Below, piece after piece: positions 17,539 to 52,127 of a DNA stretch of 64,000 nt (positions are counted from its first letter, which is position 1; every line of letters begins with the position of its first letter). A program made the translations under genes and the position numbers. Where the stretch lies: positions 1-64,000 of the forward strand of contig MENQ01000030.1 in assembly GCA_001768325.1 (NCBI GenBank). The letters run 5' to 3'. The notes under the pieces were generated by a model. The model did no database searches and was not told where the DNA came from. It saw only the letters and a program-made list of their open reading frames with translations. This stretch comes from Bacteroidetes bacterium GWC2_46_850. Lineage in GTDB: Bacteria; Bacteroidota; Bacteroidia; Bacteroidales; Dysgonomonadaceae.

Positions 17539-17631
17539 TCTTCTTTTGTGTTAATTAGTTGTTTGTATGCTGTTTACGTATCTTCTTCTTGTTTTGTCAT
17601 TTTCTTTCCTTTATCTTGTATCTTTCCATCC

Positions 17632-19640: not shown

Positions 19641-19659
19641 TTTAATTTTTGTTTAGCGT

Positions 19660-19704
19660 TCAGCTTTCAGCGATCAGGAATCAGCTGTCAGGATCCAGCT
19701 TCAG
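19660..19704. repeat. 7-nt tandem array (TCAGnnn)
   Basis: TCAG recurs every 7 bases at 19660, 19667, 19674, 19681 and 19688, then as CCAG at 19695, and again as TCAG at 19701. Fill bases vary (CTT, CGA, GAA, CTG, GAT). It lies just upstream of uxuA and next to the 8-base array. Confidence 0.75.
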
Positions 19705-19745
19705 TTATCTAAATTTATCAATTTCAGCGGTATGCAAGTAATTTG

Positions 19746-19817
19746 CACATCATCACATCATCACATCATCACATTATCACATTATCACATCATCACATCA
19801 TCACATCATCACATCAA
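19746..19817 (-). repeat. 8-nt tandem array CACATCAT, 9 units, overlapping the GH67 stop codon
   Basis: Nine contiguous 8-base units without indels: CACATCAT three times, CACATTAT twice, CACATCAT three times and a last CACATCAA. The final unit contains the TGA stop codon of the GH67 gene on the minus strand. The unit is the reverse complement, cyclically shifted, of TGATGTGA in the array at 10597. Confidence 0.95.
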
Positions 19818-22908: not shown

Positions 22909-22931
22909 CGTTATGCTATTTATAAATGGTT

Positions 22932-24053: not shown

Positions 24054-24068
24054 ATGTCAGTTTTTTAT

Positions 24069-25481: not shown

Positions 25482-25499
25482 TTTTATGTTATTTGATGA

Positions 25500-27455: not shown

Positions 27456-27456
27456 T

Positions 27457-29961: not shown

Positions 29962-30066
29962 TTTAACGCTGCTGTTTCTGTTGGATCATGCCTGTGTGTG
30001 CCCTGAGGCATCGGTAGTTTTCGAACAGAAAGGTACAAAATTTTTTTCTTTTGGATTGTATTTTAA

Positions 30067-30107
30067 GGGAAATACAAAGAGAACGGTGAAGTTCTCTCTG
30101 TATTCCC
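30067..30107 (-). terminator. long hairpin between susD and GH115 (attenuator or processing site)
   Basis: The 163-base gap between susD and GH115 contains a stem of about 17 bp: arms at 30091-30107 and 30067-30084 with a 6-base loop. On the minus-strand RNA the only imperfections are one G-U pair and one bulged U; on the plus strand the G-U becomes an A-C mismatch, so it suits the direction of the operon. The sequence after it is A-rich with only short U runs. Partial termination or RNA protection after susCD are both possible. Confidence 0.6.
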
Positions 30108-30124
30108 AATAAGTTTATAGCTAT

Positions 30125-35332: not shown

Positions 35333-35346
35333 TGTGTACGTACACA
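35333..35346. promoter_or_regulatory. LacI-type operator, perfect 14-bp palindrome
   Basis: TGTGTACGTACACA is perfectly palindromic with a central CG, the hallmark of LacI-family operators. It lies about 135 bases upstream of susC, inside the likely leader. Closely matching sites occur at 35509, 48566 and 48629. Confidence 0.7.
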
Positions 35347-35508
35347 GCATAAATTTGAAAAACAATTCACACGACAATTCCTTAATTTTCTCTTTTGTTT
35401 AAGTTGTTTTTGCAATTAAACGCACAATGAATAATTGAGGCCAGTGCTAAATACATTTATGTTTCTTTGATGGCCGATAGTTTTTAAATATTTAGATAAA
35501 ACTTAAAT

Positions 35509-35522
35509 TGTGGACGTCCACA
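35509..35522. promoter_or_regulatory. LacI-type operator, perfect 14-bp palindrome
   Basis: TGTGGACGTCCACA is a perfect palindrome with a central CG. It sits 33 bases downstream of the -7 box at 35556-35563, so a bound repressor could block the promoter or early elongation. Confidence 0.75.
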
Positions 35523-35543
35523 GTCCGATCAAGAAAAAATTTT

Positions 35544-35563
35544 ATTTGCATCATGCAAATGTA
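35544..35563 (-). promoter_or_regulatory. -7 promoter box overlapped by a 17-bp inverted repeat
   Basis: TACATTTG on the minus strand (35556-35563) matches TAnnTTTG. It shares bases with a perfect inverted repeat, ATTTGCA-TCA-TGCAAAT (35544-35560), which could be a second regulator site. No good -33 TTTG was seen at standard spacing. Confidence 0.5.
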
Positions 35564-35670
35564 AGGTATAATTTCGTAAAGAAAACATGGATCAGAAAAA
35601 AAGTTTCATTGAAATTATAGATAAGTAATATAAATTTTTTTTATATTTATGGGGGTGTTCATTTCTCCTT

Positions 35671-36930
35671 TTACCAGTCGATCCACTTCATATGGTCTGT
35701 GCATGCGTAAGGGTGAACTTCAACGTTTGTTTCTGCAGTAAAATCACCCAGCAGGAATTTGTCGATAAATGATTTCACTTCCGGTCGTTGTTTGTCGGGA
35801 AGCATGCAGTGCCCATGATCGGCTATAATGGAAAATCCGAATCGATCCGGAATTCCAAATGTCTGCCATACCCGTTGAGCAGCTTTGCACGAAACATAAC
35901 CTGACTCATCGGCCAGCCATTCGTAATCGGGATTTCCCAGACACAGCAGTGCCCGTGGTGCGATCATCGCCATCAGTTCGTGGTGGTCGAAAGGCAATTT
36001 ATTGACATGGTTGGAGAATTGAAATATCCCCTCCATAAACCAAACATGGCTAGTCCTGGCCAATGTTTCCACTTCGCCCAGTGTTTCGGAAACCCGCCAG
36101 ACAGCAGCTCCGCCGCCACCCGATTCCTGTGCAATGGTGAGGGCAATGCGTTCATCGAAGGCCGCCGCATAGAGTGCCATTTTCCCGGCGAAGGAGCAGC
36201 CGGTGATGGCTAGATGGCGCAAGTCGACCGGCAGTTTGTCTGTCACGAGTTCCAAACCGTCAATCAGACGGCTCACGCCCCACGACCAGGCGCTGTATGC
36301 CCCCATATGGATCAGCTCGGGATAGAGCCTGTTGATCGGTTCCTCACCTCTTTTTTGTTGCCAGGCCATTACCTGGGCGAAATTGAATGTAATTTGTACG
36401 ATATTGCGGGATGCAAAGAGGTCGGTAGGAAGACTGCCGGAGCTTCTACCAATGCCGATCACGGCCGGGAAAGGGCCCTCACCCTGCGGCAGGACCACAT
36501 GGGATGTGAGGATCAGCGTCTCCCTATTCACCCTGATCTGCACTTTCAGTGTATCGTTGCGGTATTCGGCGGTGATCGAGTCGGGCCGTTCCGGCTTTCT
36601 GCCGATCTCGTAGTGCTGGATCTCCGCTCCAATCTCCATCCTTCTGCGGCTCCAGTCCTCGAAGCGGGTGGATCGTCCGCTACCGTCGGACCAGGCAAAA
36701 GGGTCGGGCAGTGTTTCCATCACGGGCAGCTTCTCAAACGAAGGCAGGGAAACCTCAAAAGGGGCAACCGAATTTTCGGCATCATAGACCAGCGGTATCT
36801 CCCGGGCTGAGGTTTTGAGGTCGGTGGTGGAAGGATGCTGCATCACTCCCTGCTCGGAAAAGCCGAAGATGGATATCGTGCTCAAAACAAGAATGGTAGA
36901 TCCTTTTTTTAATCGAAAAACTGTTTTCAT
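35671..36930 (-). CDS. CE15 glucuronoyl esterase
   Basis: It hydrolyses the ester between 4-O-methylglucuronate of xylan and lignin alcohols. This 419-residue alpha/beta hydrolase has a signal peptide, the CE15 nucleophile motif GCSFAGK (Ser about 246), the conserved acid-region QESGGGG (about 268-274), HHELMAMIAPRALL and the catalytic His in ADHGHCML (about 374). It is the last gene of the second operon, after GH2. With GH115, GH67 and the CE20-like esterase it means the cluster can strip every main side group of hardwood glucuronoxylan. Confidence 0.92.
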   Translation of the reverse strand: MKTVFRLKKGSTILVLSTISIFGFSEQGVMQHPSTTDLKTSAREIPLVYDAENSVAPFEVSLPSFEKLPVMETLPDPFAWSDGSGRSTRFEDWSRRRMEIGAEIQHYEIGRKPERPDSITAEYRNDTLKVQIRVNRETLILTSHVVLPQGEGPFPAVIGIGRSSGSLPTDLFASRNIVQITFNFAQVMAWQQKRGEEPINRLYPELIHMGAYSAWSWGVSRLIDGLELVTDKLPVDLRHLAITGCSFAGKMALYAAAFDERIALTIAQESGGGGAAVWRVSETLGEVETLARTSHVWFMEGIFQFSNHVNKLPFDHHELMAMIAPRALLCLGNPDYEWLADESGYVSCKAAQRVWQTFGIPDRFGFSIIADHGHCMLPDKQRPEVKSFIDKFLLGDFTAETNVEVHPYACTDHMKWIDW

Positions 36931-36968
36931 TATCTGACGGGATTTAATTTCAACTGACGCTCTCTGTA

Positions 36969-39704
36969 TTATTCAGATTCCAGGATAAACTTGTTCTCTT
37001 TCAATCCCGGTGAATCAGCTTTGATCGTGATCCTACCCGGTTTGCCTGCTTCACCTCTCACGATCACCAGACACTGCCCGCTGAAAGCATTTCTACTGGA
37101 TGAGTGAAATGGGATCATGTCGGCCGGATTGCCGTTGTCGGTAGCCACAATCTCTCCCGGCCCCTCGATCGTATAATGAACAGGGTGGACTGCATCGGGT
37201 ACCAGAAGGCCATTGCGGTCGGTCACTTGTACGGTGATGAATGCAAGGTCACTTCCGTCTGCAGCAATCCGACTTCTGTCTGCTTCCAGCTGCAGCGTGA
37301 ATGGTTCGCCGGTAGTGACCACCACCTCCTCAGCCCATTTTTTACCGTTCTTGTAGGCGATTGCCTTCAGTTCACCCGGCTCGTAACGGATGTCATCCCA
37401 CCGCAGTCGGTATTCGAACGCTGCTTTTTGCTTCCTTCCCAGCGAGCGTCCATTGAGGAAAAGCTCTGCCTCATCGCCGGAAGTAAAGAGATGGACCGGT
37501 GTGACCTCACCTTCGCGTCCACGCCAGTTCCAGTGGGGCAGGATATGTATCATGGGAAGCTCAGGTCGCCAGCGGGACTGATAAAGGTAAAAACGATCCT
37601 TCTTGAATCCAGCAAGGTCGATGATGCCGCAGTAGGAACTGCGCGCTGAATAGTAGGGGGTGGGCTCTCCCAGATGATCCCATCCTGTCCAGACGAATCC
37701 TCCCGCTACAAAGGGATGCTTATCCTGCATCATGAACACCTTATCGGGCGACGAGCCAAAATCCACTGCATAGAGTTCGTAAGCACTGACTTGTGCCTTT
37801 CTTGAATCTCCTCCTTGCCCATCTCTCACCGGAGAGGTTATTTTCTGCGTAACCGGAAACAGGTAAATGCCCCTACTGCTGAAGGAGGAAGCTACCTCGC
37901 TGCCAAAAATCACCTTTTCCGGGTATGCAGCCTGAAAAAGATCATATTGTGGAACCGTACGGATCCGGTCGGTACCTTCAAATTCCGGCTCCTGGCGGAT
38001 GCCCTCCCCCTGATAGTTGAGGCCGATCACGTCAACCACTCGCGGGAAAGGCATGTCGGGCTTGGCATAGTTCATGGAGAGGGTGGTGGGACGTGTCGGA
38101 TCCTCTTCCTTGATAATACCGTTCAACCATGCCGCGACCGAGGCTCCCTCTTCGTCCGTGTACTGTTCTCCCACCTCGTTGCCGTAGCTCCACATGATGA
38201 CGGAAGGGTGATTTCTATCGCGACGGACAAAGGAGCGGGTATCGGCTTCTGCCCATTCGGGAAAGATAAGATGAAAATCGTGTGGTGTTTTTTTTCTTTC
38301 CCAGGAGTCGAAAATCTCGTTCACCACCAGGAATCCCATCTTGTCGGTCAACTCCAGCAACTCCGGTGCCGGTGGGTTGTGCGCCATACGAATCGCGTTG
38401 CAACCCATCTCCTGCAGCAACGCAAGCTGCCGCTCTGCGGCACGCCGGTTGAAGGCCGCACCCAGTGCGCCCAGGTCGTGGTGCTGGTTGACACCCTGCA
38501 GCTTGATGGGCTCACCATTCACCAGCACTCCCTGTTGCGGGTCTAATTGCAGATCACGGATACCGAAGGTGGTTTCATCATGGTCAATTACTTTACCTTC
38601 CCTTGTTAACCGGGTTACAGCCTTGTATAAATGGGGTGTCTGGTGTGGTTTGGGACCCCAGAGCCTGGGTTTTTTTAACACGACAGCATATTTTTCTTTT
38701 CCGCTTGCACCGGCATCCAGCACCATCTCTCCGACGCGAGACCGTGCTACTGCTTTCCCAGAGAGTGCTCCCTGCTCGTTCAATTCAAAAATTTCAGTCT
38801 CAATCCCGATCGATACCTCAGTTTGCGCATTGTTGTCGACACCCACCTCCAGATTGAGGGTTGCAGCAGAATCGGAGATATCGCTTGCGGTAACGTAGGT
38901 ACCCCATTGTCCGATGTGGACGGCATTGGTCTTGGTGAGCCATATATTGCGATAAATTCCTGCTCCGGGGTACCAGCGGGAGGAGTGGTTGGGATTGTCA
39001 ATCCGGATGGCCAGCTGGTTTTCTTCACCGTAGCGGATATAGGGTGTCAGATCGAGCCGCCAGGAATTGTAGCCGTAGGGCCAGCCGCCCACCAGGGTAC
39101 CATTGAGCCAGACCATGGCATAGGACATGGCGCCTTCCACATCGAGAAAGATCGACCTGCCCTCATCTGTTGCCGGAATGGCAATTCCCTTCCTGTACCA
39201 GGCCACACCCTGTACAGGGAGACGACCCATACCACCACCCACAACGGGATTGTTACCCGCATAAAAGGGCCCTTTGATTGCCCAGTCGTGCGGTAGATTG
39301 ACCTTCTCCCAGCCGGTGTCGTCAAAATCGTGTTGTACAAAAGGGAAATCTTTTCCGGGCGCTTCACCTTCGGGACGAATAGACCGATTTGCCGGGTCAG
39401 CGATAAAAGGATTTGCCGTGGGCAGGATCCAGGGCTTCAGCACCTCCGTGGAAACAGCCGCTTCGACTGCCTCCGTCGGTTTGGCATCGGCCACCAGATA
39501 CTCGCCTGCTTCTGTTATTTCCGGGCGGATGTCATAGATCAGGTTGTCTGTCTTTTCGGGAGAGTCATACCGGAAGAAGGACCAGTCCTCGTTGATCAGT
39601 GTCTGTTCCCGTACAATGGCGTCACCTCTTCTTTGAGGTGCACAGGAAAGAATCAAGCTTCCTCCCAGAATGATAAAAATAAGTCTTGATTTAGATATAA
39701 GCAT
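36969..39704 (-). CDS. GH2 glycoside hydrolase, beta-galactosidase-like lipoprotein
   Basis: 911 residues with a lipoprotein signal (ILGGSLILSCAP). The order is the jelly-roll sugar-binding domain (VNLPHDWAIKGPF), an Ig-like domain, the TIM barrel with GVNQHHDLGALGAAF and the acid/base Glu in WSYGNEVGEQY, nucleophile Glu in VIFGSEVAS, then DUF4982-like and Ig-like C-terminal domains. The NQHHDLG motif is typical of Bacteroidetes beta-galactosidases, but GH2 also holds xylosidase-like and other activities; in a xylan operon a galactosyl or xylosyl side chain is possible. It has an unusually clear ribosome-binding site (AAGGAG 5-6 bases before the ATG) that can pair with an upstream hairpin arm. 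Confidence 0.9.
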   Translation of the reverse strand: MLISKSRLIFIILGGSLILSCAPQRRGDAIVREQTLINEDWSFFRYDSPEKTDNLIYDIRPEITEAGEYLVADAKPTEAVEAAVSTEVLKPWILPTANPFIADPANRSIRPEGEAPGKDFPFVQHDFDDTGWEKVNLPHDWAIKGPFYAGNNPVVGGGMGRLPVQGVAWYRKGIAIPATDEGRSIFLDVEGAMSYAMVWLNGTLVGGWPYGYNSWRLDLTPYIRYGEENQLAIRIDNPNHSSRWYPGAGIYRNIWLTKTNAVHIGQWGTYVTASDISDSAATLNLEVGVDNNAQTEVSIGIETEIFELNEQGALSGKAVARSRVGEMVLDAGASGKEKYAVVLKKPRLWGPKPHQTPHLYKAVTRLTREGKVIDHDETTFGIRDLQLDPQQGVLVNGEPIKLQGVNQHHDLGALGAAFNRRAAERQLALLQEMGCNAIRMAHNPPAPELLELTDKMGFLVVNEIFDSWERKKTPHDFHLIFPEWAEADTRSFVRRDRNHPSVIMWSYGNEVGEQYTDEEGASVAAWLNGIIKEEDPTRPTTLSMNYAKPDMPFPRVVDVIGLNYQGEGIRQEPEFEGTDRIRTVPQYDLFQAAYPEKVIFGSEVASSFSSRGIYLFPVTQKITSPVRDGQGGDSRKAQVSAYELYAVDFGSSPDKVFMMQDKHPFVAGGFVWTGWDHLGEPTPYYSARSSYCGIIDLAGFKKDRFYLYQSRWRPELPMIHILPHWNWRGREGEVTPVHLFTSGDEAELFLNGRSLGRKQKAAFEYRLRWDDIRYEPGELKAIAYKNGKKWAEEVVVTTGEPFTLQLEADRSRIAADGSDLAFITVQVTDRNGLLVPDAVHPVHYTIEGPGEIVATDNGNPADMIPFHSSSRNAFSGQCLVIVRGEAGKPGRITIKADSPGLKENKFILESE

Positions 39705-39706
39705 GA

Positions 39707-39750
39707 CATCTCCTTTTTAAACAGGGAGATGGCCAGAACGGCCATCTCCC
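39707..39750 (-). promoter_or_regulatory. intercistronic hairpin with alternative pairing to the GH2 ribosome-binding site
   Basis: Between the split GH10 and GH2, GGGAGATGGCC and GGCCATCTCCC (arms 39724-39734 and 39740-39750, loop of 5) form a perfect 11-bp stem. The arm at 39725-39731 is also perfectly complementary over 7 bp to the GH2 Shine-Dalgarno stretch (39707-39713, minus GGAGATG). The two structures exclude each other: one frees and one hides the ribosome-binding site. No strong U tract follows, so simple termination is less likely. Confidence 0.55.
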
Positions 39751-39772
39751 CAGCATATTGCTGATTTAATTT

Positions 39773-42112
39773 TTATTCTTCGGTATACACATTCACATAG
39801 TCATCACCGGTGAAGTCCTCACTGATGTCACGCCCTGCAAGTCCGTCGCAGAACCCTTTGTAGGCATGTTTCCGATTGAAGTCCTTGTCGAACAGGTTGG
39901 GAGACTCGTCCGGGAGCCAGTATTCATGTTCCCGCGGATGGTCGGTCAGTGTCCAGATGGTGATGCCTGAACGTTGTGCCTGGGGAACATGTTTGATATA
40001 GGATTCAGCGATTTGTCGGTAAGTCTTCGCCTGCATCTCCAGCTGACCTGCACTGGGAGAGGCGGTGCCCAGTCGCACATCCAGTTCGGTCACCCGCACG
40101 ATCTTGCCGGTGGCAGCCATTTTCTTAAACATGTTGTCCACCTTGGTGTTGAAGGCAGCAGTCGTGTCGGCGCTCACGTGCATCTGTGTGCCGATACCGT
40201 CTACCGTCTGGCCGTTTTGTTCGATATAGGCTACGAAGTCGATCAGGGCATCCAGCTTCGAAGGGTTGCTTTCAAGGTTGTAGTCATTGACAAACAACAC
40301 GGTTCCTTGTGGCGCATACTTTCGGGCATACTCGAATGCTTTTACCGCGTACTCCTTGCCGATGTAGTAACCCCAGTAGAAATGATCGTCGGCCCAGTTA
40401 AGCTCCAGCCCTTCATTCTCCACGGGGTGACTGTCTTCGTTCATGAAGTTGCCGCCGATGCCACGCCACTGATTATTGTCTGCGATGGGCTCGTTGATCA
40501 CATCCCAGCCGTAAATACGATCACCGCTGTGTTGAACAATCCCTTTGATCCACGCTTCCATGGCACCGAGCAGTGCTGCTTTCTTCTCTATTTCGGTTTT
40601 GTAGACATAGGTGATACCGCCGGCCCGGGTGCCCATGGTGGAGGCAGCAGCAGGTGCAGGCGCTTCCGGTTCCTCAATTGTCACTGTTACATCATCGATG
40701 TAATAGGTGACGTCGGGCAGATAGCCAAAGTCGAAATTACATTTCCACACGGCAACGCCTTCTGCAAAATCAGTATTAAAGTCCTGTAGCACCACGCTGA
40801 TCTGCTGCCAAGCGGTTCCCACCTCAAATGCCTCGGTCCAGCCGCTTTGCGATCCCGTCCAGTTCATCCATGGATAACCATTGGTCAACCCCGAGAAAGA
40901 GATACGTCCTTTTCCTGTCTGGTCAGCCTTGACGAAGAAAGAGAGCCGTACCTTCTCACCGGGGAAGGCAGGTATCTCGGGTGATGCCATCTGCAGATCC
41001 CACGCTTTGGAAGCACCACTGCCGGCAATCATCTTCACGGCTTGGCTTCCTGCAGGGGCATCGGGCAATGACACAGCCTCGATGCCGGCACCGGGATTGT
41101 TTGCATTCCATCCTTCCAATCCTTTTTCGAATGAACCGTTGGGCACATGGTTGACCGGTCCCGTTTTCTTCTTGCCGAACTTGAAATCGTCGATGTAATA
41201 GTCGCCTGCACCCGCTCCGAAGTCGATGGTGATGTGGCTGATGGGCAGGTTTACCAATGCTGCTGTCATGGCGATCTCCGCTTCAAAGTAGTACCATTGC
41301 TTTGCCGGCACACTTTGTGCAGTGTAACCACCGCCACTATACGATGTGCGATTTTGGAGCTGTATCTGGAAGCCGGGGTTTCCCTCTTCGGAGTATACAT
41401 AAAACGATACGATATAGGTTTCACCCTCTTCCCAGGTTGTAGCCGGCAGTGTGTAATATGCCTGTGCCGAGTAGTTGGCTCCCTCCTTGGGATTGTTCAG
41501 CAGCATGGCGTAACTGCTGTTGTATCCTTTTCCGGGGCCGGCAATTTTCTGGGAAGCACCGGCACTGGACCATGCTCCCCATCCGGAAGTGTTGCCCGCC
41601 TCGAAGTCGGAATTAAGTATGATGTTCTCCAGCTTGTCGCCTGGATCTGTCACAATGACCACTTCGGGGGCAATGAGCGACTTCAGGTAGGCCTGTCGCT
41701 GCTGGGTGTGCCAGAGCAGGTTGTGTCCCAGTATTTTCATATCAGCCGGAAGCGTATTGAAGAGGGCGTCGATGGTGGTAAAGTCCAGGGTTCCATTATT
41801 TCTCACCACCGAGGAGTGTTTCATTGCATTTCCGGGAGTAAACAGCTGGAAATTTTTGTCGATTACCTCCTTGTATTTCGGGTCATTGATGTAGAGGTCA
41901 GCACCGGCACCAATTCCCACGATCATGCCCGACGGCACGTAAGCCTTGATGAAATCGTAATTCGCGATCTTTTCGGCCAGGTTCAATGGAATCTCCGAGG
42001 CGGTAACAGGGTTGTGTCCCTCGGGGGTCTTCCATTCCATCACCTGGTCGTCGCAGCTATTCAGCAGCAGTACAGCAGCCAATAGGGTAATAATAATTTT
42101 ATGTAGTTGCAT
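39773..42112 (-). CDS. GH10 xylanase interrupted by two CBM4-like modules (lipoprotein)
   Basis: 779 residues with lipobox LLLNSCDD (Cys about 20). The GH10 barrel begins normally (about 45-150, HNLLWHTQQRQAYL). It is interrupted by two beta-sandwich carbohydrate-binding modules (about 163-312 and 321-480, each starting NSDFE/NGSFE and ending YYIDDF/YYIDDV), then resumes at about 500. The acid/base Glu is in WDVINEP (541) and the nucleophile in RVTELDVR (676). The same split layout is known for surface xylanases of Bacteroides and Prevotella xylan loci. It likely makes the first cuts in polymeric xylan on the cell surface. It follows the surface glycan-binding protein gene. Confidence 0.95.
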   Translation of the reverse strand: MQLHKIIITLLAAVLLLNSCDDQVMEWKTPEGHNPVTASEIPLNLAEKIANYDFIKAYVPSGMIVGIGAGADLYINDPKYKEVIDKNFQLFTPGNAMKHSSVVRNNGTLDFTTIDALFNTLPADMKILGHNLLWHTQQRQAYLKSLIAPEVVIVTDPGDKLENIILNSDFEAGNTSGWGAWSSAGASQKIAGPGKGYNSSYAMLLNNPKEGANYSAQAYYTLPATTWEEGETYIVSFYVYSEEGNPGFQIQLQNRTSYSGGGYTAQSVPAKQWYYFEAEIAMTAALVNLPISHITIDFGAGAGDYYIDDFKFGKKKTGPVNHVPNGSFEKGLEGWNANNPGAGIEAVSLPDAPAGSQAVKMIAGSGASKAWDLQMASPEIPAFPGEKVRLSFFVKADQTGKGRISFSGLTNGYPWMNWTGSQSGWTEAFEVGTAWQQISVVLQDFNTDFAEGVAVWKCNFDFGYLPDVTYYIDDVTVTIEEPEAPAPAAASTMGTRAGGITYVYKTEIEKKAALLGAMEAWIKGIVQHSGDRIYGWDVINEPIADNNQWRGIGGNFMNEDSHPVENEGLELNWADDHFYWGYYIGKEYAVKAFEYARKYAPQGTVLFVNDYNLESNPSKLDALIDFVAYIEQNGQTVDGIGTQMHVSADTTAAFNTKVDNMFKKMAATGKIVRVTELDVRLGTASPSAGQLEMQAKTYRQIAESYIKHVPQAQRSGITIWTLTDHPREHEYWLPDESPNLFDKDFNRKHAYKGFCDGLAGRDISEDFTGDDYVNVYTEE

Positions 42113-42132
42113 GGGGTATTTATTTTAATAAG

Positions 42133-43533
42133 TTATTCTTCGCCCTCCTCGGGGTAATCGGAGATGGTGATGCTTTCGTAAGGAACCACGCGCCAGTTAT
42201 CCAGATAGACACGCGTCGTAAAGGTTGTAGAGGTAACCTCCACTCCCTGGTAGGTGAAATCGGTGTTCACAAAACCGAGTCCAAAGTTCTTATAGGTTGC
42301 CGCGTTGCGTTCGTCGACGACCATCTGGAACGTGGGTGCCTGCTGATCTTCCACAAGTGCCTTGTACTTGCCGAACTCGCTGAAGGGAATGGTCACCGTT
42401 TGCCACGCTCCGGCGGTGAACGGTACTACCTCTCCCTCTTGAATCCAGGGTACGTAGAAAGCGGCCTGTTTGGAAGCGCTGTCGTCGTCCGACCCAACCC
42501 CGGAGAAGTTGAAGTTATTGAACAGCACCACCTGAATGTGACCGGTACCTACCCACTTGTCCGGTACGAGGACGTCAAACTGGAACGCCACCTCTGTCAG
42601 GGGAGTCGTTTGTGGAATGTAGGGATACATCCGGCTCCAGTCGTCCATATCGTTACCGTTCCCAGCTGTCCAGACCTCGGTTGCCCGCGGTTTCCCCGGT
42701 GCGATGCCTCCCGCAGAAATCAGCCGTTCCGGGACGATTTGCACCACCTTACCCCGTCCGCTGTTCAGGGGATCGTCTACCAAGTCTTTGTCGTTGATCA
42801 TTGAACCGGATTCGCTCCAGCTCCAGAATCCTTGCGAACCATTTCCGTCGAAATCGAGGATCATGCCGTTGGCGTTGTTGAAATAGGCGGGTGTAGCGGC
42901 AATGCCATTGGCGCCTTCGGAGTAGAGCGAGCCGCCTTGGGTGATGCCCTCGGGCATGGTGAAGGAGTACCATGCTCCCGCTTCGTCACTTACAATGCCG
43001 GTGGACAGTGCAGTCCCGCCGGGGAAGGTAAGCTTGGTCGTTTCCTGCAGGCCTGTTCCGTAAACGTATACCGTTTCGCCTGGTTGGGGCAGGGTGTTGC
43101 TCACACTGCTTATCACGGGACTCGCTGCCCGGATGGTGAAGGTGAAACGCGTATCGGTGCCGTCTTTCACGAATTGGATCACATCCCGCACTTGGGGATC
43201 TGCATCCACAACTGGTGTTTTGCTGTTGATCTGTATCAACATGGAGTTGTCTGTCACGTATGCCCGGTTAAAATAGGTATCATACCCGTTGATATAAACT
43301 TTTTTCATGCCATAGAGGCCACTGCCTTCCACCCGGATCAACTGCCCGAGGCGTGCGTAGTCGACAAGGCGATCGGGAACCGAAGAATTGTGGTCTTCGA
43401 GGTAAATCTTGTTGATAACGATGGCGGTGCTTTGGTACTTGCCGTCGAAATATTCGTCGCTGTCGTTGCAAGCAGTAAATACAGCCGATAGAGACGCCAG
43501 GCACAGCAACCATATATATTTGAAACTCTTCAT
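42133..43533 (-). CDS. surface glycan-binding protein (SGBP/SusE-position, IPT/TIG domains)
   Basis: 466 residues, lipoprotein signal (SLSAVFTACNDSD, Cys about 22). Two Ig-like IPT/TIG domains (about 35-130 and 135-220; GQLIRVEGSGLYGMKKVYING and PQPGETVYVYGTGLQETTKLTF) serve as spacers. They are followed by a C-terminal beta-sandwich (about 225-450, MILDFDGNGSQGFWSWSESG through TTRVYLDNWRVV) that resembles xylan- or xyloglucan-binding domains of SGBP-B proteins. It has no catalytic residues. It sits between susD and the surface xylanase, the usual place for this protein. Confidence 0.88.
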   Translation of the reverse strand: MKSFKYIWLLCLASLSAVFTACNDSDEYFDGKYQSTAIVINKIYLEDHNSSVPDRLVDYARLGQLIRVEGSGLYGMKKVYINGYDTYFNRAYVTDNSMLIQINSKTPVVDADPQVRDVIQFVKDGTDTRFTFTIRAASPVISSVSNTLPQPGETVYVYGTGLQETTKLTFPGGTALSTGIVSDEAGAWYSFTMPEGITQGGSLYSEGANGIAATPAYFNNANGMILDFDGNGSQGFWSWSESGSMINDKDLVDDPLNSGRGKVVQIVPERLISAGGIAPGKPRATEVWTAGNGNDMDDWSRMYPYIPQTTPLTEVAFQFDVLVPDKWVGTGHIQVVLFNNFNFSGVGSDDDSASKQAAFYVPWIQEGEVVPFTAGAWQTVTIPFSEFGKYKALVEDQQAPTFQMVVDERNAATYKNFGLGFVNTDFTYQGVEVTSTTFTTRVYLDNWRVVPYESITISDYPEEGEE

Positions 43534-43596
43534 ACGATTAAAGTTATTTGTTTTTTTTCATTGGAATTACATAATATGCATTCGCAGGTGCGATCA

Positions 43597-45285
43597 TCAA
43601 TCGAACAGGTCTGAAACGGTGATCTCTTTATCGCCAAACTCGTAGGGCACAGGTTCGTTATTCAGCAGCGAGTTCCGTCCACGGTCCACGTCGGATATAG
43701 GCAGGTGCAGGTTGGCCGCGGTAGCGGTGGCAACCCCCGTTCCTTCCCCGGTAATGGCGTATTGCGACTCTTCCGTCTCGTCCCATTCGTAGCCGGCGTT
43801 TCTATCCTGGTTGTTCAGGTAGTTCACCACTTCCTGTTGCCTGTAGTAAGCCCTGCGTACAAGGTCGTACCAGTATTGTCCTTCGAGTGCCAGCTCGATG
43901 CGGCGCTCGTAGCGGATATCTTCGTAGGTGATCGATTCCAGTGTGGGCATCCCGGCTCGTTGCCGCACCCTGTTAAAGTAGGTGAGCGCGGTGGCGTCGC
44001 TTGTGGAAGCATTGTTTCCAAGGATCGCTTCGGCGAGATTCAGATACACTTCTGCCAAACGCATCATGTAGGTGTTCAGGCCGCTGCTTTGCTGATAACT
44101 CTGTCCGTTATCATCCAGCTTGCCGATCACATATTTTTTGATATTGCATTTCTCCGCGTAACCGGTCTCGGTTTCGTTATAGATATAGCCTCCATTTTTT
44201 ACGTTCAGGTCGGGATACACGGCTCCCACCGTGGCAATCGTGTGGTGACGGCGTATCCGGTCTCTCCGGTCGTACGCTCGCACGAGGTCATACGAGGCAT
44301 ACGTAGCATTTCCCCAGTTGGTTTCGCCCACCATGGTAGACCAGGCGAAGAAGGCCGGCATGGGATTATTACCACCCCAGCCAATGGCGTCGGTGCTTCC
44401 CCGTAGCCACTGCAGCTGGAATATCGATTCACTGTTGTTGTTGGTGGTAGCCACCGCGAAGAGGTCGCCGTAGTTCGCTAACAAGGAGTAAGGTCCCTCC
44501 TCTATGGTCTTCAGGGCTGCCGAACGTGCCAGGCTGAGGTAGTAGGTGTTGCGTGTTCCGCGGTTGAAGTCTGTAGCCACATTGGAACCATTGTATTCGC
44601 CCTCGGTGGTGAGACCGGCCATGGACAGGTAGACGCGCGACAGCATGCCATAGGCACTGTAACAGGTAACCCGTCCCACGTTGGCGGCGGTACGTGACAG
44701 GTTGGCTGCCGCATATTCGAGATCCCGTACAGCAAACTCGATCACGTCGATGCCCCGGTTTGCTGGGACGACCGAGTTTTTGACCTGCTCGGCGGTGTTC
44801 TCGTAGATGATGCCTTTGCCCCAGAGCGAGGCGATGTACCAGTAGGCTACTCCCCGCATGAACCGGGCTTCGGCAAACGCTTGTACCTTGGCTGCTTCGG
44901 TCACCTGGGGGCCTGCATACTGCTTGATGTTGTTGATGGCGTAGTTTGATTGTGCCACCACCGAGTAGAGCGATCCCCATGCTTCTTCCAGCCCTTCGCT
45001 GAGGGCGGTTTCGGTGAAGTTGGTGTAGGGATAGATATAGGGCGACCAGCGGGCGGTGATGTTGTTACCCCTGCCGTCTCCCATTCCATAATAAAACTTC
45101 TCGTTAAAGCTGTACCACACGTAGTTATACAGAGGGGCGGTAGCTGCCTCCACGGCCTTGTCGCTGTCGAAGAACGTCTCCTGGTTCGCGTTTGTGGTGT
45201 TGTCGTGGGTTAGGAAATCTTCGCATGCAGTGGTGAATGCCAGGAGGCTACCCAGCACCGCTATGATTGTTGCTTTATGTTTCAT
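43597..45285 (-). CDS. SusD/RagB-family nutrient-binding lipoprotein (second operon)
   Basis: A lipoprotein signal (GSLLAFTTACEDFL) leads into the SusD helical scaffold with EAWGSLYSVVAQSNYAINNI, ARFMRGVAYWYIASLWGKG and a C-terminal RIELALEGQYWYDLVRRAYY segment. I use the ATG at 45285, which opens directly into the signal peptide (MKHKATIIAVL); an ATG four codons upstream (45297) is also possible. Length is about 562 residues. It directly follows its SusC partner and precedes the surface glycan-binding protein. Confidence 0.95.
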   Translation of the reverse strand: MKHKATIIAVLGSLLAFTTACEDFLTHDNTTNANQETFFDSDKAVEAATAPLYNYVWYSFNEKFYYGMGDGRGNNITARWSPYIYPYTNFTETALSEGLEEAWGSLYSVVAQSNYAINNIKQYAGPQVTEAAKVQAFAEARFMRGVAYWYIASLWGKGIIYENTAEQVKNSVVPANRGIDVIEFAVRDLEYAAANLSRTAANVGRVTCYSAYGMLSRVYLSMAGLTTEGEYNGSNVATDFNRGTRNTYYLSLARSAALKTIEEGPYSLLANYGDLFAVATTNNNSESIFQLQWLRGSTDAIGWGGNNPMPAFFAWSTMVGETNWGNATYASYDLVRAYDRRDRIRRHHTIATVGAVYPDLNVKNGGYIYNETETGYAEKCNIKKYVIGKLDDNGQSYQQSSGLNTYMMRLAEVYLNLAEAILGNNASTSDATALTYFNRVRQRAGMPTLESITYEDIRYERRIELALEGQYWYDLVRRAYYRQQEVVNYLNNQDRNAGYEWDETEESQYAITGEGTGVATATAANLHLPISDVDRGRNSLLNNEPVPYEFGDKEITVSDLFD

Positions 45286-45304
45286 TGTATAATCCATTTT
45301 TTAA

Positions 45305-48300
45305 TTAAAAAGAGACGTTCAATCCAACGGTATAGATCCGGGGTGAAGGATAGCGACCGTAGTCTACCCCGTTCATCAACGCATCGCCATACATGGCGCC
45401 AATCTCGGGGTCTAACCCCTTGTATTTGGTCCAGGTGTACAGGTTTTGGATGTTGGCATATATTCTCACGTTATCCAGGTAGATCTTGCTGATCCATCCT
45501 TTCGGCAGTGTGTATCCTACCGATATGTTCTGCAGTCGCAGGAACGACGCGTCCTCGATGAGCAGGTTGCTCACCCGCGTGTAGTTGTTGTTGGCATCCG
45601 ATTCCTGGAGAGCGGGCATGGTGGGGGAGCCCCCGACGACATGCAGGTTGCGGTAGTCGTTTGCCGGCCCGTTGGGATCAATCATTTCCACTTTCGCGTA
45701 ATCGAGCGACGAGCGGAGGATGTTGGCGTTCGACCTCGGGTCTTCGATGCGGAACCGGGCGAGGTTCAGTGCCTGGTTTCCGTAGGATCCCGAGAAGAAG
45801 ATTGTCAGGTCGAGGCCCTTGTAGGAAAACGTGTTTCCGATACCGTAGGTAAATTTGGGCTCCGGATTCCCGATAAAGGTGGCATCTTCGTTGTTGATCA
45901 GCCCGTCACCATTGCGATCCTCGAAGATATAGTCACCAATCCAGGTGCTGTTTTCTGCGATGGAGTTTCCTTCCGGGATGGCTACCTGCTTCACATTTCC
46001 TTCCCCGTCCTTATAATAGAAGTCGGTAGGCTCATCGAACCGTCCGATCACCTTGTATCCCCAGAACTGTCCGATGGGTTCGCCCACGGTTGTTTTGGTA
46101 ACAATGTAATTGGTCGACCCGGGCTGATAGGTTTTCTCAATCGAGGAGTTGTCGGTATCCAGCTCCAGAACTTTGTTGCGGTTGAGGGAATAGACCAGGT
46201 TGGTGGTCCATTGAAAATCTCTGTTCGTGATGTTGGTGGTGTTCAGCGTGAGCTCGATCCCCTTATTCTCGAGTGAGCCGATGTTGCCCCACGGGTTCGC
46301 TGCCGCTCCTTGTCCGCTGGAGCCCAGATATGCCGGCAGCGGAAGCTGGAGGAGCAAGTTTTTGGTCTCTTTGTAGTAGACGTCGCCAATGAACTCTACC
46401 CGGTTGTTGAATAGCCCGAGGTCGATCCCCAAGTTATAGGAATAGGTGGTCTCCCAGGTTAGGTCGGGATTGGCCGTGTTGCCGGTCAATACGCCCGTGC
46501 CCCAAGGTGTGGTCCTGAACGAGAGCAGTGCCATATAGGCATAGTCGTTCACGTTCTGGTTACCGGTTGCTCCCCAGCCGAAACGAAACTTCATGTTGTC
46601 GATGGTGGAGTTGTCGACCAGGAACGACTCCTGCGATGTACGCCAGGCTAACGCCAGCGAGGGGAACCAACCCCATTTGTTTCCGGTGGCGAATTTTGAA
46701 GAACCATCCCGGCGCAGGGTAGCCGTCGCCAGGTAACGCTCGTCGTATGAGTAGAATGCGCGTCCGAAACCTGAGGCGATGGAGTTAGATATCCGTGAAC
46801 CGGTAGCAGTTGAGGTGGTGATATCACCCGCGCTCAGGTCTGGGGTGGTGTTTGTCAGGAACCCCGTAACTGTACCGTTCTGTGTCTCCCAGTCGGCTTG
46901 TGACATCTCTTGACCAAGCATCAGGTTGATTGCGTGCACATCATTGACCCGGGCATCGTAGGTGAGGATGTTGCGCCACGACCAGTACTTGGAGTCGGTC
47001 TTTGTCCATCTTGAAGTACGTGTATCACTCGTTTTGATTCCGAACTGGTAATCGGGCTGGTAATAGTAAAACTTATTGAAATTGAAGTCATTCGAGAGTT
47101 CGCTCCGGTAGGTTAGCCCTTTCGTTATGGTTGCCTCCAGGTAAGTATTGAACCGGAAGTTTGTTTTGATGTTGTTGTTCGTCCGGATGGAAGTGAGCCC
47201 CACGGGGTTGTCCGGCATCCACACATCATCGGGTCCGTCATAAGAACCGTCGGGCGAGGTAACCGCGACCGTTGGCTGCTGTAGCAGCGCGCTCATGATG
47301 GTGTTGTTGTCGGTGCCCACATCTTGTCTCGATTCGGCAAACGAGAAGTTGACACCGCCGCGCAGCCACGATTTGATGTGGGTGTCCACGTTAGCACGCA
47401 GGGAGAGGCGCCTGAACCCGGATCCGAGCGCTATCCCCTCCTGGTTGAGATAACCCCCGCTGATGGCGTAGGTGGTCATCTCGTTTCCACCGCTTACCGA
47501 GAGATTATGGCTTGTCATCAGTGCTTTACGGAACAGTTCGTCTTGCCAGTTGGTGCCTTCTCCCAGCAGGTCAGGACGGACGAAGGCGCTGCTTTTGTTC
47601 ACCAGTCCCAGTTCTGCCCGTTCGTTGTGATGCGTGGCATACTCCCTCAGGTTCAGCATGTCGAGTTGACTGGGCATCTCTTGCCAGCCGGTGTAGCCGT
47701 CGTAGGTGACAATTGCTTCGCCTTTGCTGCCCCGTTTGGTGGTGATCATGATTACACCATTGGAGGCTCGGGCACCATAGATGGCACTCGCAGAGGCATC
47801 CTTCAAGATATCCATCGATACGATATCCGACGGGTTGATGCTGGATAGCGGGTTGCTCGACTCGCTGTTGGTGGATGAATCCACAATCACGCCATCAATC
47901 ACGAAAATGGGTTGATTTGTCGCGTTAAGGGAGTTTATCCCCCGGATACGAATGGCCGAGCTGGCACCCGGTGTTCCCGAGTTGGCCTGTATCTGGACTC
48001 CTGCTGCGCGTCCCTGAAGTACCTGGTCGATGGAGGTAGGCACCGATCGTTTGATGGCTGCATCGGTTACCGAGACAACCGCACCGGTTAAGTCACTGCG
48101 GCGCATTTGTCCGTATCCTACCACCACCACTTCTTCCAGTAGTTCGGTGTCTTCATGCAACACTACCCGGAGGGAGGTGCGGCCGTTCAATGCAATACTT
48201 TGTGTGCGCATGCCCACATAGGAAACCTCAAGGGTGGCACCCCCAGGCACATTGGGTAAGGAGAAATTACCGTTCATATCGGTAACCGTGCCGACGGATG

Positions 48301-48457
48301 TACCCGTCACCTGCACTGTTACCCCGATCAACGGCTCTCCCGTGGCATCAGAAACCGTGCCCGTGACGGTCACGTTCTGAGAGAACAAACTCAGGGAAAC
48401 TGCTCCCACTAAAGTGAGACAAAATCCCCTCAACAGATTCGAAATTTTTCTTTTCAT
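45305..48457 (-). CDS. SusC/RagA-family TonB-dependent oligosaccharide transporter (second operon)
   Basis: 1050 residues: signal peptide, carboxypeptidase-regulatory-like domain (about 28-105), EEVVVVGYGQ (about 108-117), plug domain with MDILKDASASAIYGARASNGVIMITT, and a barrel ending in YTVGLNVSF. It should import xylan fragments made by the split GH10. The N-terminal 120 residues and the leader are strongly similar to the first SusC, while the barrels differ, consistent with two transporters of related but different size or decoration preference. It is first in its operon, behind two LacI-type operators. Confidence 0.97.
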   Translation of the reverse strand: MKRKISNLLRGFCLTLVGAVSLSLFSQNVTVTGTVSDATGEPLIGVTVQVTGTSVGTVTDMNGNFSLPNVPGGATLEVSYVGMRTQSIALNGRTSLRVVLHEDTELLEEVVVVGYGQMRRSDLTGAVVSVTDAAIKRSVPTSIDQVLQGRAAGVQIQANSGTPGASSAIRIRGINSLNATNQPIFVIDGVIVDSSTNSESSNPLSSINPSDIVSMDILKDASASAIYGARASNGVIMITTKRGSKGEAIVTYDGYTGWQEMPSQLDMLNLREYATHHNERAELGLVNKSSAFVRPDLLGEGTNWQDELFRKALMTSHNLSVSGGNEMTTYAISGGYLNQEGIALGSGFRRLSLRANVDTHIKSWLRGGVNFSFAESRQDVGTDNNTIMSALLQQPTVAVTSPDGSYDGPDDVWMPDNPVGLTSIRTNNNIKTNFRFNTYLEATITKGLTYRSELSNDFNFNKFYYYQPDYQFGIKTSDTRTSRWTKTDSKYWSWRNILTYDARVNDVHAINLMLGQEMSQADWETQNGTVTGFLTNTTPDLSAGDITTSTATGSRISNSIASGFGRAFYSYDERYLATATLRRDGSSKFATGNKWGWFPSLALAWRTSQESFLVDNSTIDNMKFRFGWGATGNQNVNDYAYMALLSFRTTPWGTGVLTGNTANPDLTWETTYSYNLGIDLGLFNNRVEFIGDVYYKETKNLLLQLPLPAYLGSSGQGAAANPWGNIGSLENKGIELTLNTTNITNRDFQWTTNLVYSLNRNKVLELDTDNSSIEKTYQPGSTNYIVTKTTVGEPIGQFWGYKVIGRFDEPTDFYYKDGEGNVKQVAIPEGNSIAENSTWIGDYIFEDRNGDGLINNEDATFIGNPEPKFTYGIGNTFSYKGLDLTIFFSGSYGNQALNLARFRIEDPRSNANILRSSLDYAKVEMIDPNGPANDYRNLHVVGGSPTMPALQESDANNNYTRVSNLLIEDASFLRLQNISVGYTLPKGWISKIYLDNVRIYANIQNLYTWTKYKGLDPEIGAMYGDALMNGVDYGRYPSPRIYTVGLNVSF

Positions 48458-48565
48458 TCCCGGATTTATTTAGATTAATAAGTTCTCTTGTCAGCAAGAT
48501 CAATCGTTTAAGCGCTTACCGTGGTTTCCCTGATTTAGTGAATATTCATTTGCGTTTTTTTATCA

Positions 48566-48579
48566 TGTGGACGTACACA
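48566..48579. promoter_or_regulatory. LacI-type operator
   Basis: TGTGGACGTACACA, a palindrome with one mismatched pair and a central CG. It is the same sequence as the site 63 bases upstream and differs by one base from each of the two sites before the first susC. Confidence 0.7.
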
Positions 48580-48597
48580 GTTTAATTATTATGAAAT

Positions 48598-48630
48598 CAT
48601 TGCTTTATCGCTTATGGTGATAAAGCAATG
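48598..48630. promoter_or_regulatory. 12-bp inverted repeat between the two operators
   Basis: CATTGCTTTATC and GATAAAGCAATG form perfect arms around a 9-base loop. The outer arm shares its last two bases with the operator at 48629-48642. It could fold in the leader RNA or be a further protein site; no U tract follows. Confidence 0.6.
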
Positions 48631-48642
48631 TGGACGTACACA
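48629..48642. promoter_or_regulatory. LacI-type operator
   Basis: A second copy of TGTGGACGTACACA, 42 bases downstream of the -7 box at 48685. The comparable distance before the first susC is 33 bases, so both promoters have an operator just after the start of transcription. Confidence 0.72.
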
Positions 48643-48684: not shown

Positions 48685-48692
48685 CAAAGGTA
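48685..48692 (-). promoter_or_regulatory. -7 box of the second susC operon
   Basis: On the minus strand TACCTTTG matches TAnnTTTG exactly. A weak TTTA lies upstream at non-standard spacing; no good -33 element is visible. Confidence 0.5.
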
Positions 48693-51030: not shown

Positions 51031-52098
51031 ATGCAACAAAAGATTCGCATCAAGGATATCGCGGAGATGGCAGGTGTTTCTCCCGGCACGGTCGATCGAA
51101 TACTCCACAACAGGGGAAATGTGTCGGAGGCTGCCCGTACAGCCGTGGAGGAGGTCTTGAAGAAAGTGAATTACAAGCCGAATATCCACATCTCCGGATT
51201 ATCTTTGAAGCGGAAATATAAAGTGGTCATCACCACGCCCGGTGTAACAGAAGGTGAGTATTGGGAGAGTATCCATTTCGGGATTCAGCATGCGCTCGAG
51301 GAATACGAGAATATCCGCATCAAGTGTCAGGTGCATACGTATAATGAATTTGATGTCTATTCCTGCAGGGAGGTGTATGACCGGATTTTGCAGATTGATG
51401 CCGATGGCGTCATCATCGGCTTGACTTTCAAGGAAGAGACGCTCAGGCTCACCAAAAAGCTCGAGGAGAAGGGAATACCGTACATATTCGTGGATTCAAC
51501 CATGGAAAATGCATCCCCCCTGGCATTTTTTACCTCCGATCACTACCGATGTGGTTATCTGATGGCCAAGCTGATCACATCCATTATCCCCCGGAACAGT
51601 GACATTGGCATTTCCCATGCGGTAAGAATCGGCGACGAAAGTGCAAATACCAGTATATTGCGTCAGCATGGCTTTAACGACTATCTCTCGGAGAAGAAAA
51701 AAACAAATAAGATGCAACGAATCCCATATTCCACCATGGAACCTGAGAAGAATGATGCGTGGGTGAAAGAATTGTTTCATGATCAGCACAATATTGGTGG
51801 GGTGGTTTTCTTTAATTCCCGGGGAGGGCTGCTTGCCGATTGCTTTGCCCGAAACGGAATCAACAACATCCCTTTAATAGGCGTTGATCTCACGGTTTCC
51901 AACGTCAGGGGATTAAAAAGCGGGTATATCGATTTCCTGATCGGCCAGGAGCCTGAACATCAGGGGTTTCTTGCCATGAAGACCCTGATTGAATATCTGG
52001 TTTACAGAAGGCCTGTCAAGGTGCAGAACTATGTACAGCTCGATATTCTGACAAAGGAAATTATCGATTATTACGACCAGTTTAATTATTTATCCTGA
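51031..52098 (+). CDS. LacI-family transcriptional regulator, copy 1
   Basis: 355 residues. The N-terminal helix-turn-helix (IRIKDIAEMAGVSPGTVDRILHNRGNVSE, about 5-33) and hinge (NYKPNIHISGLSLKRK) lead into a periplasmic-binding-protein-type effector domain (about 62-330). I chose the ATG at 51031: it starts right at the DNA-binding domain and gives the same length as the paralogue. The open frame to 50962 would add 23 unlikely residues inside the promoter. It shares about 75% identity with the next gene by hand alignment. It probably senses a sugar or uronide and represses the susC operons at TGTGnACGTnCACA sites; that link is inferred. Confidence 0.9.
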   Translation: MQQKIRIKDIAEMAGVSPGTVDRILHNRGNVSEAARTAVEEVLKKVNYKPNIHISGLSLKRKYKVVITTPGVTEGEYWESIHFGIQHALEEYENIRIKCQVHTYNEFDVYSCREVYDRILQIDADGVIIGLTFKEETLRLTKKLEEKGIPYIFVDSTMENASPLAFFTSDHYRCGYLMAKLITSIIPRNSDIGISHAVRIGDESANTSILRQHGFNDYLSEKKKTNKMQRIPYSTMEPEKNDAWVKELFHDQHNIGGVVFFNSRGGLLADCFARNGINNIPLIGVDLTVSNVRGLKSGYIDFLIGQEPEHQGFLAMKTLIEYLVYRRPVKVQNYVQLDILTKEIIDYYDQFNYLS

Positions 52099-52127
52099 AA
52101 AGGAGAACCGCTTTAAATTACCGGATT

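What the first reader, a model, noticed from the sequence alone, without database searches (positions are those of the whole stretch)
35333..48642. Four copies of one LacI-style palindrome control both xylan susC operons
TGTGTACGTACACA (35333), TGTGGACGTCCACA (35509) and TGTGGACGTACACA twice (48566, 48629) are near-identical 14-mers with a central CG, placed in pairs just downstream of the TAnnTTTG boxes of both susC promoters. Two LacI-type regulators are encoded in the same locus. Xylan loci in Bacteroides are known mainly for hybrid two-component control, so a repressor-type circuit with four operators would be a different logic. The sites and genes are seen; the binding is inferred.
Basis: partly seen in the sequence, partly recalled or inferred. 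Interest (0 to 1): 0.72.

Follow-up and report, generated by a model that had tools for sequence, protein, structure and literature searches.

The report
LacI-pair operators controlling xylan genes
Four matching DNA switches in front of two xylan (plant-fibre sugar) gene sets in a Proteiniphilum-like bacterium are very probably the landing sites of two neighbouring LacI-type repressors, and some close relatives seem to run the same genes with an unrelated regulator instead.

Summary
TGTGKACGTMCACA occurs exactly four times in the 3.75 Mb Proteiniphilum-like genome, all at the two xylan susC leaders. The motif follows the LacI clade: 37 of 43 family genomes with a clade member lacking helix lysine carry TGTGNACGTNCACA, against 3 of 40 without a clade member. 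Seven of seven susC1 orthologues in genomes with a LacI1 orthologue keep two sites in leaders that mostly do not align. In four of five susC1-bearing genomes with an NrtR-type (XylR-like) protein, susC1 has no site and the NrtR gene lies beside it. LacI1 and this NrtR never co-occur (11 and 11 of 39 genomes). Best reading: a duplicated LacI repressor pair of uronate-regulator type controls the glucuronoxylan locus from sites 41-217 nt downstream of the promoter boxes, in place of the NrtR regulator of sister lineages. Binding, repression and effector are inferred. LacI-type repressors over xylan genes are known elsewhere (Xanthomonas XylR), so this is a new variant of a known kind.

The parts
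35333..35346 (.). operator O2 of susC1, TGTGTACGTACACA (perfect palindrome), 217 nt downstream of the promoter box
35509..35522 (.). operator O1 of susC1, TGTGGACGTCCACA (perfect palindrome), 41 nt downstream of the promoter box
   Evidence: a TAnnTTTG box lies upstream of the first site in 8 of 8 susC1 promoters compared
48566..48579 (.). operator O2 of susC2, TGTGGACGTACACA, 113 nt downstream of the box
48629..48642 (.). operator O1 of susC2, TGTGGACGTACACA, 50 nt downstream of the box
48685..48692 (-). promoter -7 box TACCTTTG of the susC2 operon (consensus match only)
51031..52098 (+). LacI1, LacI-family regulator, reading helix VSPGTVDRILHNRG
   Evidence: Pfam LacI and Peripla_BP_4; start; model pLDDT 89.9; nearest solved fold 3gbv
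52128..53195 (+). LacI2, tandem paralogue, 75% identical, same reading helix
32088..35198 (-). SusC1, first gene of an operon-like run SusC1-SusD1-GH115-esterase-like-GPH symporter-GH10-GH43-like-GH67-uxuA-uxuB-xylB-xylA
14689..32059 (-). rest of the susC1 run, SusD1 down to xylose isomerase, all on the minus strand with gaps under 200 bases
   Evidence: co-transcription inferred
45305..48457 (-). SusC2, first gene of the run SusC2-SusD2-SGBP-GH10/CBM-GH2-CE15
35671..45297 (-). rest of the susC2 run (SusD2, surface glycan-binding protein, GH10 with CBM, GH2, CE15-type glucuronyl esterase)
   Evidence: co-transcription inferred

Best explanation
The four palindromes are operators of the tandem LacI-family proteins encoded at 51031-53195. 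Without a xylan-derived signal the proteins bind, probably as dimers, and hold down transcription from the two susC promoters, mostly by standing in the path of RNA polymerase downstream of the start (possibly also by bridging the two sites of a pair), so that the outer-membrane, hydrolytic, uptake, glucuronate and xylose steps of glucuronoxylan use are switched together. Some other members of the regulators' clade sit beside uronate catabolism genes; in one lineage of Proteiniphilum the pair is found where sister lineages have an NrtR-type XylR-like protein. Shown: the sites, their uniqueness in the genome, conservation, co-inheritance, exclusion with the NrtR gene. Inferred: binding, repression, effector, mechanism of block, direction of the swap.
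For: 4 of 4 exact genome copies are in the two susC leaders. 35 forward against 3 control hits over 39 genus genomes; by my reading, 31 of the 35 lie beside, or one gene from, xylan or uronate pathway genes or LacI-clade genes. 37 of 43 family genomes with a clade LacI (50% identity or more to LacI1) of non-lysine helix carry TGTGNACGTNCACA, 1 of 4 with only the lysine type, 3 of 40 with no clade member (first against the other two, Fisher p about 8e-14, relatedness ignored; one genome with an unread helix left out). Of 49 non-lysine clade LacI genes 17 have a full TGTGnnCGnnCACA site within 400 nt upstream, all 17 with centre ACGT; of 10 lysine ones 9 have a site (6 full, 3 with one mismatch) with CGA. 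7 of 7 susC1 orthologues in LacI1 genomes keep paired sites, 13 of 14 sites perfect. The site-bearing susC1 genes form one clade, support 100/99. LacI1 orthologues (11) and close XylR-like NrtR proteins (11) never share a genome among 39 (chance about 0.013 if relatedness is ignored). No HTCS sensor domain (Y_Y_Y) lies on the window's contig although the genome has 11 matches elsewhere.
Against: No binding or expression data. LacI1 and LacI2 of the window have no site in the 400 nt before them, as is true of 32 of 49 non-lysine clade records, although 72% of LacI-family regulators studied by others are autoregulated (PMC4052901, passages). The lysine/CGA change is a single event on the tree and one lysine protein (L154) has centre ACGT. 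Outside the clade residue 17 does not predict the centre: of 27 far relatives 7 have a full site, with centres ACGT in only one (L124), and L149 has valine with CGA, while 3 far lysine proteins have no site. 6 of 43 genomes with a non-lysine clade LacI lack the motif (G004, G007, G018, G070, G071, G077). G025 has paired susC1 sites but no LacI1 or LacI2 was found (draft, 92% complete). G024 has the NrtR relative 37 kb away and two degenerate sites at susC1. Pair spacing varies from 63 to 201 bp without a common helical phase, which gives looping no support. Which of the two proteins binds cannot be told.
Confidence: 0.85

Rival explanations
1. The sites are operators, but of another DNA-binding protein of the genome (for example a Crp-type global regulator or the third clade LacI), and the LacI pair beside them is incidental.
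For: TGTG-N6-CACA has a Crp-like look (recalled); a Crp-type global motif is predicted in Bacteroides (PMC3878776, passages). The genome holds 6 LacI-family proteins. G025 has the sites but no LacI1 or LacI2 was found there.
Against: The Bacteroides Crp-like consensus quoted there (wwwTATGTTnTAnAACATAwww) is different. A global regulator's site would not be expected in only 4 copies at one locus. The third clade LacI has a lysine helix and its own variant site TGTGCACGAACACA at its own promoter. Presence of the motif follows the LacI clade across 87 genomes.
Confidence: 0.08
2. The palindromes act in the RNA of the leader (hairpins or pairing between the two copies), not as protein operators.
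For: They lie in the predicted transcribed leader; the folded susC2 leader pairs the two copies with each other (z -2.87).
Against: The two susC1 site regions fold about as well as shuffles (z 0.49 and -1.02). The same 14-mer lies upstream of clade LacI genes, and within the clade its centre differs with a residue of the reading helix.
Confidence: 0.03
3. The LacI pair activates rather than represses, or only fine-tunes a locus whose main switch is elsewhere (a distant HTCS or sigma/anti-sigma pair).
For: 11 HTCS-type sensor-domain matches exist in the genome; Bacteroides AraR sites overlap HTCS regulons (PMC4666351, passages).
Against: A predicted promoter box lies upstream of the first operator in 8 of 8 susC1 promoters and in susC2, so the sites are placed for blocking. 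No HTCS sensor domain lies on the contig. Four sister genomes have another one-component regulator beside the same gene.
Confidence: 0.15
4. Chance palindromes.
For: None beyond the short length of the motif.
Confidence: 0.01

Closest known systems
XylR (LacI family) and the xyl-box (TGGTAGCGCTAACA) of Xanthomonas; LacI-type XylR of Caulobacter (PMC10380989, passages)
   Same: A LacI-type repressor acts through a 14-bp palindrome on xylan degradation and xylose genes.
   Different: Other letters (TGTGnACGTnCACA here); another phylum; here two tandem regulators and two SusC/SusD operons with paired operators downstream of the promoter box.
UxaR, UxuR, KdgR and UxmR, LacI-family uronate regulators of Bacteroides (PMC3878776 and PMC4052901, passages)
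   Same: LacI family, same order, uronate pathways; the LacI3-type relative in L060 sits in a cluster with glucuronate isomerase, mannonate oxidoreductase and KDPG aldolase.
   Different: Listed for B. thetaiotaomicron under cytoplasmic sugar pathways; KdgR and UxmR regulons are said to hold a few extracytoplasmic genes, but I saw no xylan SusC/SusD operon assigned to them in the passages read. Orthology with LacI1/LacI2 was not tested.
XylR and AraR (NrtR family) of Bacteroides (PMC3878776 and PMC4666351, passages)
   Same: One-component cytoplasmic control of pentose pathways; AraR has tandem sites and covers SusC/SusD systems. An NrtR-type protein lies beside the orthologous susC1 in four sister genomes.
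   Different: Nudix-type protein, not LacI. The window's genome has only a distant NrtR relative, 33% identical, on another contig.
Hybrid two-component systems of xylan PULs in Segatella, Prevotella and Bacteroides (PMC11784079 and PMC10766802, passages)
   Same: Same kind of genes controlled.
   Different: HTCS combine a membrane sensor with an AraC-type DNA-binding part; no HTCS sensor domain found on this contig.

Membership tests
LacI-family regulator and its operators | N-terminal LacI helix-turn-helix domain and periplasmic-binding-protein-like effector domain | tested here: met
   PF00356 and PF13407 over their cut-offs for both proteins; the LacI1 model matches 3gbv and the LacI and PurR structures
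LacI-family regulator and its operators | even palindrome with central CG | tested here: met
   TGTGNACGTNCACA; CG-centred even palindromes (16-22 nt there) are described as typical in PMC4052901 (passages)
LacI-family regulator and its operators | protein binds the site and an effector releases it | not testable with these tools
   only comparative evidence
Xanthomonas-type XylR / xyl-box | operator TGGTAGCGCTAACA | tested here: not met
   the sites read TGTGKACGTMCACA; xyl-box letters from PMC10380989
Bacteroides XylR (NrtR family) | NUDIX plus NrtR_WHD protein beside the xylose/xylan genes | tested here: not met
   no close relative in the own genome, only a 33% match on contig C4; met in G001, G008, G013 and G032
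HTCS-controlled PUL | HTCS gene (Y_Y_Y sensor domain) at the locus | tested here: not met
   11 matches in the genome, none on contig C30
Bacteroides UxuR/UxaR/KdgR branch | common branch on the LacI tree | not tested
   the B. thetaiotaomicron sequences were not fetched
Bacteroides UxuR/UxaR/KdgR branch | location with uronate catabolism genes | tested here: met
   for the LacI3-type relative in L060; for LacI1/LacI2 the locus holds uxuA and uxuB together with xylan genes

The most novel reading that the evidence does not exclude
A xylan utilization locus changed its master regulator within one genus: from an NrtR-type XylR-like protein to a duplicated uronate-type LacI pair that kept one reading head (no fixed difference between LacI1 and LacI2 orthologues in residues 1-62) but diverged in the sensor domain, so that two different signals, for example a xylose-side and a glucuronate-side metabolite, act on one set of four operators: a dual-input switch for glucuronoxylan.
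Probability: 0.33. Interest if true: 0.66.

Novelty: new variant of a known kind. Interest (0 to 1): 0.52.

Why it matters
If true, a glucuronoxylan PUL, from SusC to xylose isomerase, is under a LacI repressor pair, outside the HTCS and sigma/anti-sigma schemes usually described for such loci. The genus then offers a natural comparison: orthologous susC genes under two unrelated one-component regulators. Tandem regulators with one reading head and two sensor domains make a testable case of signal integration on shared operators.

Tried and rejected
Rejected: chance. Weak matches elsewhere: TGTTGAAGTACACA at 50566 lies inside the GH42 gene; at up to 2 mismatches the genome gives 84 forward hits against 94 for the reversed control, so degenerate hits tell nothing. 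TGTGCACGAACACA at C21:97809 lies inside an open reading frame and was taken as chance; the copy at C21:156529 sits at the LacI3 promoter. Looping with a fixed phase: pair spacings of 63, 138, 144, 160, 160, 165, 175, 176 and 201 bp have no common phase. RNA reading.

Statistics that are not independent evidence: the lysine-17/CGA change is one event, the sign test has 1 pair and cannot reach significance. The Fisher values and the overlap chance ignore relatedness.

A count mended on checking: one search put genome G007 with the lysine-only group and G077 with the non-lysine group without its helix having been read. One search showed G077 to be non-lysine (serine), G034 to be lysine as assumed, and a second, partial clade LacI of G007 to be non-lysine (valine). 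The split is therefore 43/4/40, not 42/5/40.

Rows dropped: the LacI tree used 63 of 87 records (those under 290 aa, and those under 50% identity except five chosen as outgroup, left out). Of the 60 clade records one (L169) starts at a contig end and has no readable helix. G016 (fragment, no helix found; it has one motif copy) is outside the 43/4/40 split of 88 genomes. G025 was left out of the footprint alignment because its susC1 is identical to that of G017. G032 is not in the susC1 tree. G022 (susC1 56% identical, no site, no close NrtR) and G025 (paired sites, neither regulator found) are outside the 7-of-7 and 4-of-5 counts.

Papers: none was read whole; I saw search listings and found passages of PMC3878776, PMC12125979, PMC10766802, PMC4052901, PMC4666351, PMC10380989 and PMC11784079. 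No paper on a LacI-controlled xylan SusC/SusD locus in Bacteroidota showed up in those nine searches; most papers of subscription journals are not held.
Full report
WHAT IS THERE. The window is the first 64 kb of a 115-kb contig of a 3.75-Mb genome in 32 contigs whose named relatives are Proteiniphilum, family Dysgonomonadaceae, order Bacteroidales. The locus is, by its enzymes, a glucuronoxylan utilization locus. One minus-strand run goes SusC1, SusD1, GH115, an esterase-like protein (named by eye, scanned in no call), a glycoside-pentoside-hexuronide symporter, GH10 (match below the model's cut-off), a GH43-like protein (weak matches only), GH67, mannonate dehydratase, mannonate oxidoreductase, xylulokinase and xylose isomerase. 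A second goes SusC2, SusD2, surface glycan-binding protein, GH10 with CBM, GH2 and a CE15-type glucuronyl esterase. Two LacI-family genes stand in tandem (51031-52098 and 52128-53195), 75% identical, with the same reading helix VSPGTVDRILHNRG.

MORE THAN CHANCE. TGTGKACGTMCACA occurs in the whole genome only at these four places, and the reversed control does not occur; about 0.06 would be expected from base composition. Over 39 genus genomes there are 35 forward and 3 control hits, in 18 genomes. Reading the neighbours, I place 31 of the 35 beside, or one gene from, xylan or uronate pathway genes or LacI-clade genes; the other four (one each in G003, G005, G009 and G038) I cannot place.

WHO READS THE SITE. 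The genome has six LacI-family proteins; three belong to one clade. Of 60 clade records (56% identity or more to one of the three) 49 have a residue other than lysine at helix position 17 (VSxGTVDR) and 10 have lysine; one is unread. Of the 49, 17 have a full TGTGnnCGnnCACA site within 400 nt upstream, and all 17 have the centre ACGT. Of the 10, 6 have a full site, all with CGA in place of CGT, and 4 a site with one mismatch, of which 3 have CGA and one (L154) CGT. The own genome's third member is of the lysine type, and its site TGTGCACGAACACA overlaps the last two bases of its promoter box. This fits a direct contact, but the change happened once on the tree, so it is one observation and not ten; and among 27 far relatives residue 17 does not predict the centre (7 full sites, one ACGT, one CGA with valine). 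Over 88 family genomes, TGTGNACGTNCACA is present in 37 of 43 with a non-lysine clade LacI, in 1 of 4 with only the lysine type, and in 3 of 40 without a clade member; one genome has an unread helix. All 88 together give 89 forward and 13 control hits.

ORTHOLOGOUS PROMOTERS. susC1 orthologues come from 14 genomes (13, and G019). In the 7 with a LacI1 orthologue (G000, G006, G009, G017, G019, G020, G037) all 7 have a pair of sites; 13 of the 14 sites are perfect to TGTGNACGTNCACA and one has one mismatch. The leaders align over their length only within close groups (G000 with G006; parts of G009, G019 and G020); across groups little aligns but the last 30 or so bases before the start codon. 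The pairs are kept while position and spacing (138-201 bp) drift. A TAnnTTTG box lies upstream of the first site in 8 of 8 promoters (G025 included, which repeats G017), 16-143 nt away; shuffles of the 160 nt before the site contain such a box in 10-18% of cases. The operators thus lie downstream of the predicted promoter, which argues for a block of elongation or promoter clearance and not for plain occlusion.

A SWAP OF REGULATORS. Five of the susC1-bearing genomes have a close relative (73% identity or more) of an NrtR-type protein: G001, G008, G013, G024 and G032; the four of these proteins that I scanned (G001, G008, G013, G032) have NUDIX and NrtR_WHD domains. In those four the NrtR gene lies beside susC1 and no site with 11 or 12 of 12 matches is found in the fetched stretch around it; susC1 of G032 is broken into three reading frames in that assembly. 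The fifth, G024, has two degenerate sites close to the start codon and its NrtR gene 37 kb away. Over 39 genomes, LacI1 orthologues (11: ten at 80% or more, plus G014, a partial match whose tandem pair is seen in L050) and close NrtR relatives (11, 71% or more) never occur together; the chance of no overlap is 0.013 if relatedness is ignored. Site-bearing susC1 genes are one clade (100/99); the four NrtR-type ones in that tree fall in two branches outside it. NrtR-type XylR is known from Bacteroides (PMC3878776 and PMC4666351, passages), so I take NrtR as the older state; the root of the tree is weak and does not prove it. The susC2 orthologue of G001 also lacks sites, that of G020 has TGTGCACGTGCACA.

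WHY TWO LACI PROTEINS. LacI1 (9 sequences) and LacI2 (7 sequences) differ in a fixed or nearly fixed way at 17 residues, none of them in residues 1-62. Several (72, 105, 106, 108, 130, 157, 259, 260, 289) fall in strand ends and loops that, by the predicted topology, should face the effector cleft of this fold; no coordinates were measured. At 12 of the 17 LacI2 shares the state of the LacI2-like proteins of other Proteiniphilum, at 2 LacI1 does, at 3 neither, so LacI1 looks like the more diverged copy. The LacI3-type relative in L060 sits in a cluster of glucuronate isomerase, mannonate oxidoreductase, a PfkB-type kinase, 6-phosphogluconate dehydrogenase and KDPG aldolase. Hence the proposal of a uronate-type ancestor and, more boldly, of two sensors on one operator set.

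COMPARISON WITH THE KNOWN. LacI-type XylR with the xyl-box in Xanthomonas works alike but has another operator (PMC10380989). LacI uronate regulators and NrtR pentose regulators are predicted or shown in Bacteroides (PMC3878776, PMC4052901, PMC4666351). Xylan PULs of Segatella carry HTCS genes (PMC11784079), and HTCS, sigma/anti-sigma pairs and catabolite repression are named as the canonical controls of hemicellulase genes (PMC10766802). All of these were seen as passages only. The combination here, a LacI pair over both xylan SusC operons with paired downstream operators and an apparent regulator swap inside one genus, did not show up in the searches listed under Tried and rejected.

VERDICT. 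New variant of a known kind, interest 0.52.

Noticed in passing
window 48598-48630: A 12-bp stem lies between the two susC2 operators (it overlaps the first by two bases) and folds far better than shuffles (z -7.28). It may be a leader hairpin or a second palindromic binding site. I did not see it by eye in the susC2 leader of G020.
   Followed up: partly
window 48509-48518: TAAGCGCTTA, a 10-bp perfect palindrome, lies between the susC2 operators and the start codon; its core resembles that of the Xanthomonas xyl-box. Not tested for conservation.
   Followed up: no
G000:C21:154521-157674 (L084, L009): The third clade LacI (lysine helix) lies next to a long gene with an HTCS-type sensor domain, has its own variant site overlapping its TAnnTTTG box, and is followed by SusC/SusD-like genes.
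   Followed up: partly
L189 and L179 (G024), upstream of susC1: Two degenerate sites, TGTGTACGAACACA and TGTGCACAAACACA, stand 3 bases apart just before the start codon in a genome that also holds the NrtR relative: a possible intermediate state.
   Followed up: no
L067, L072, L164, L193: In relatives a site (in L193 with one mismatch) stands between GH42 and a gene of GH3 size next to LacI1/LacI2; only the L193 gene was shown to be GH3. In the window that gene is absent and the susC2 leader takes the same place behind GH42.
   Followed up: partly
window 10044-10775: A NUDIX-like reading frame (by eye) carries an N-terminal stretch of repeated SSHHQIIT-like units, perhaps a short tandem DNA repeat in front of the real start.
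   Followed up: no
G068 (same family, another genus): Seven copies of TGTGNACGTNCACA in one 3.0-Mb genome, the largest number among the 88 genomes; contexts were not read and may show a wider regulon.
   Followed up: no
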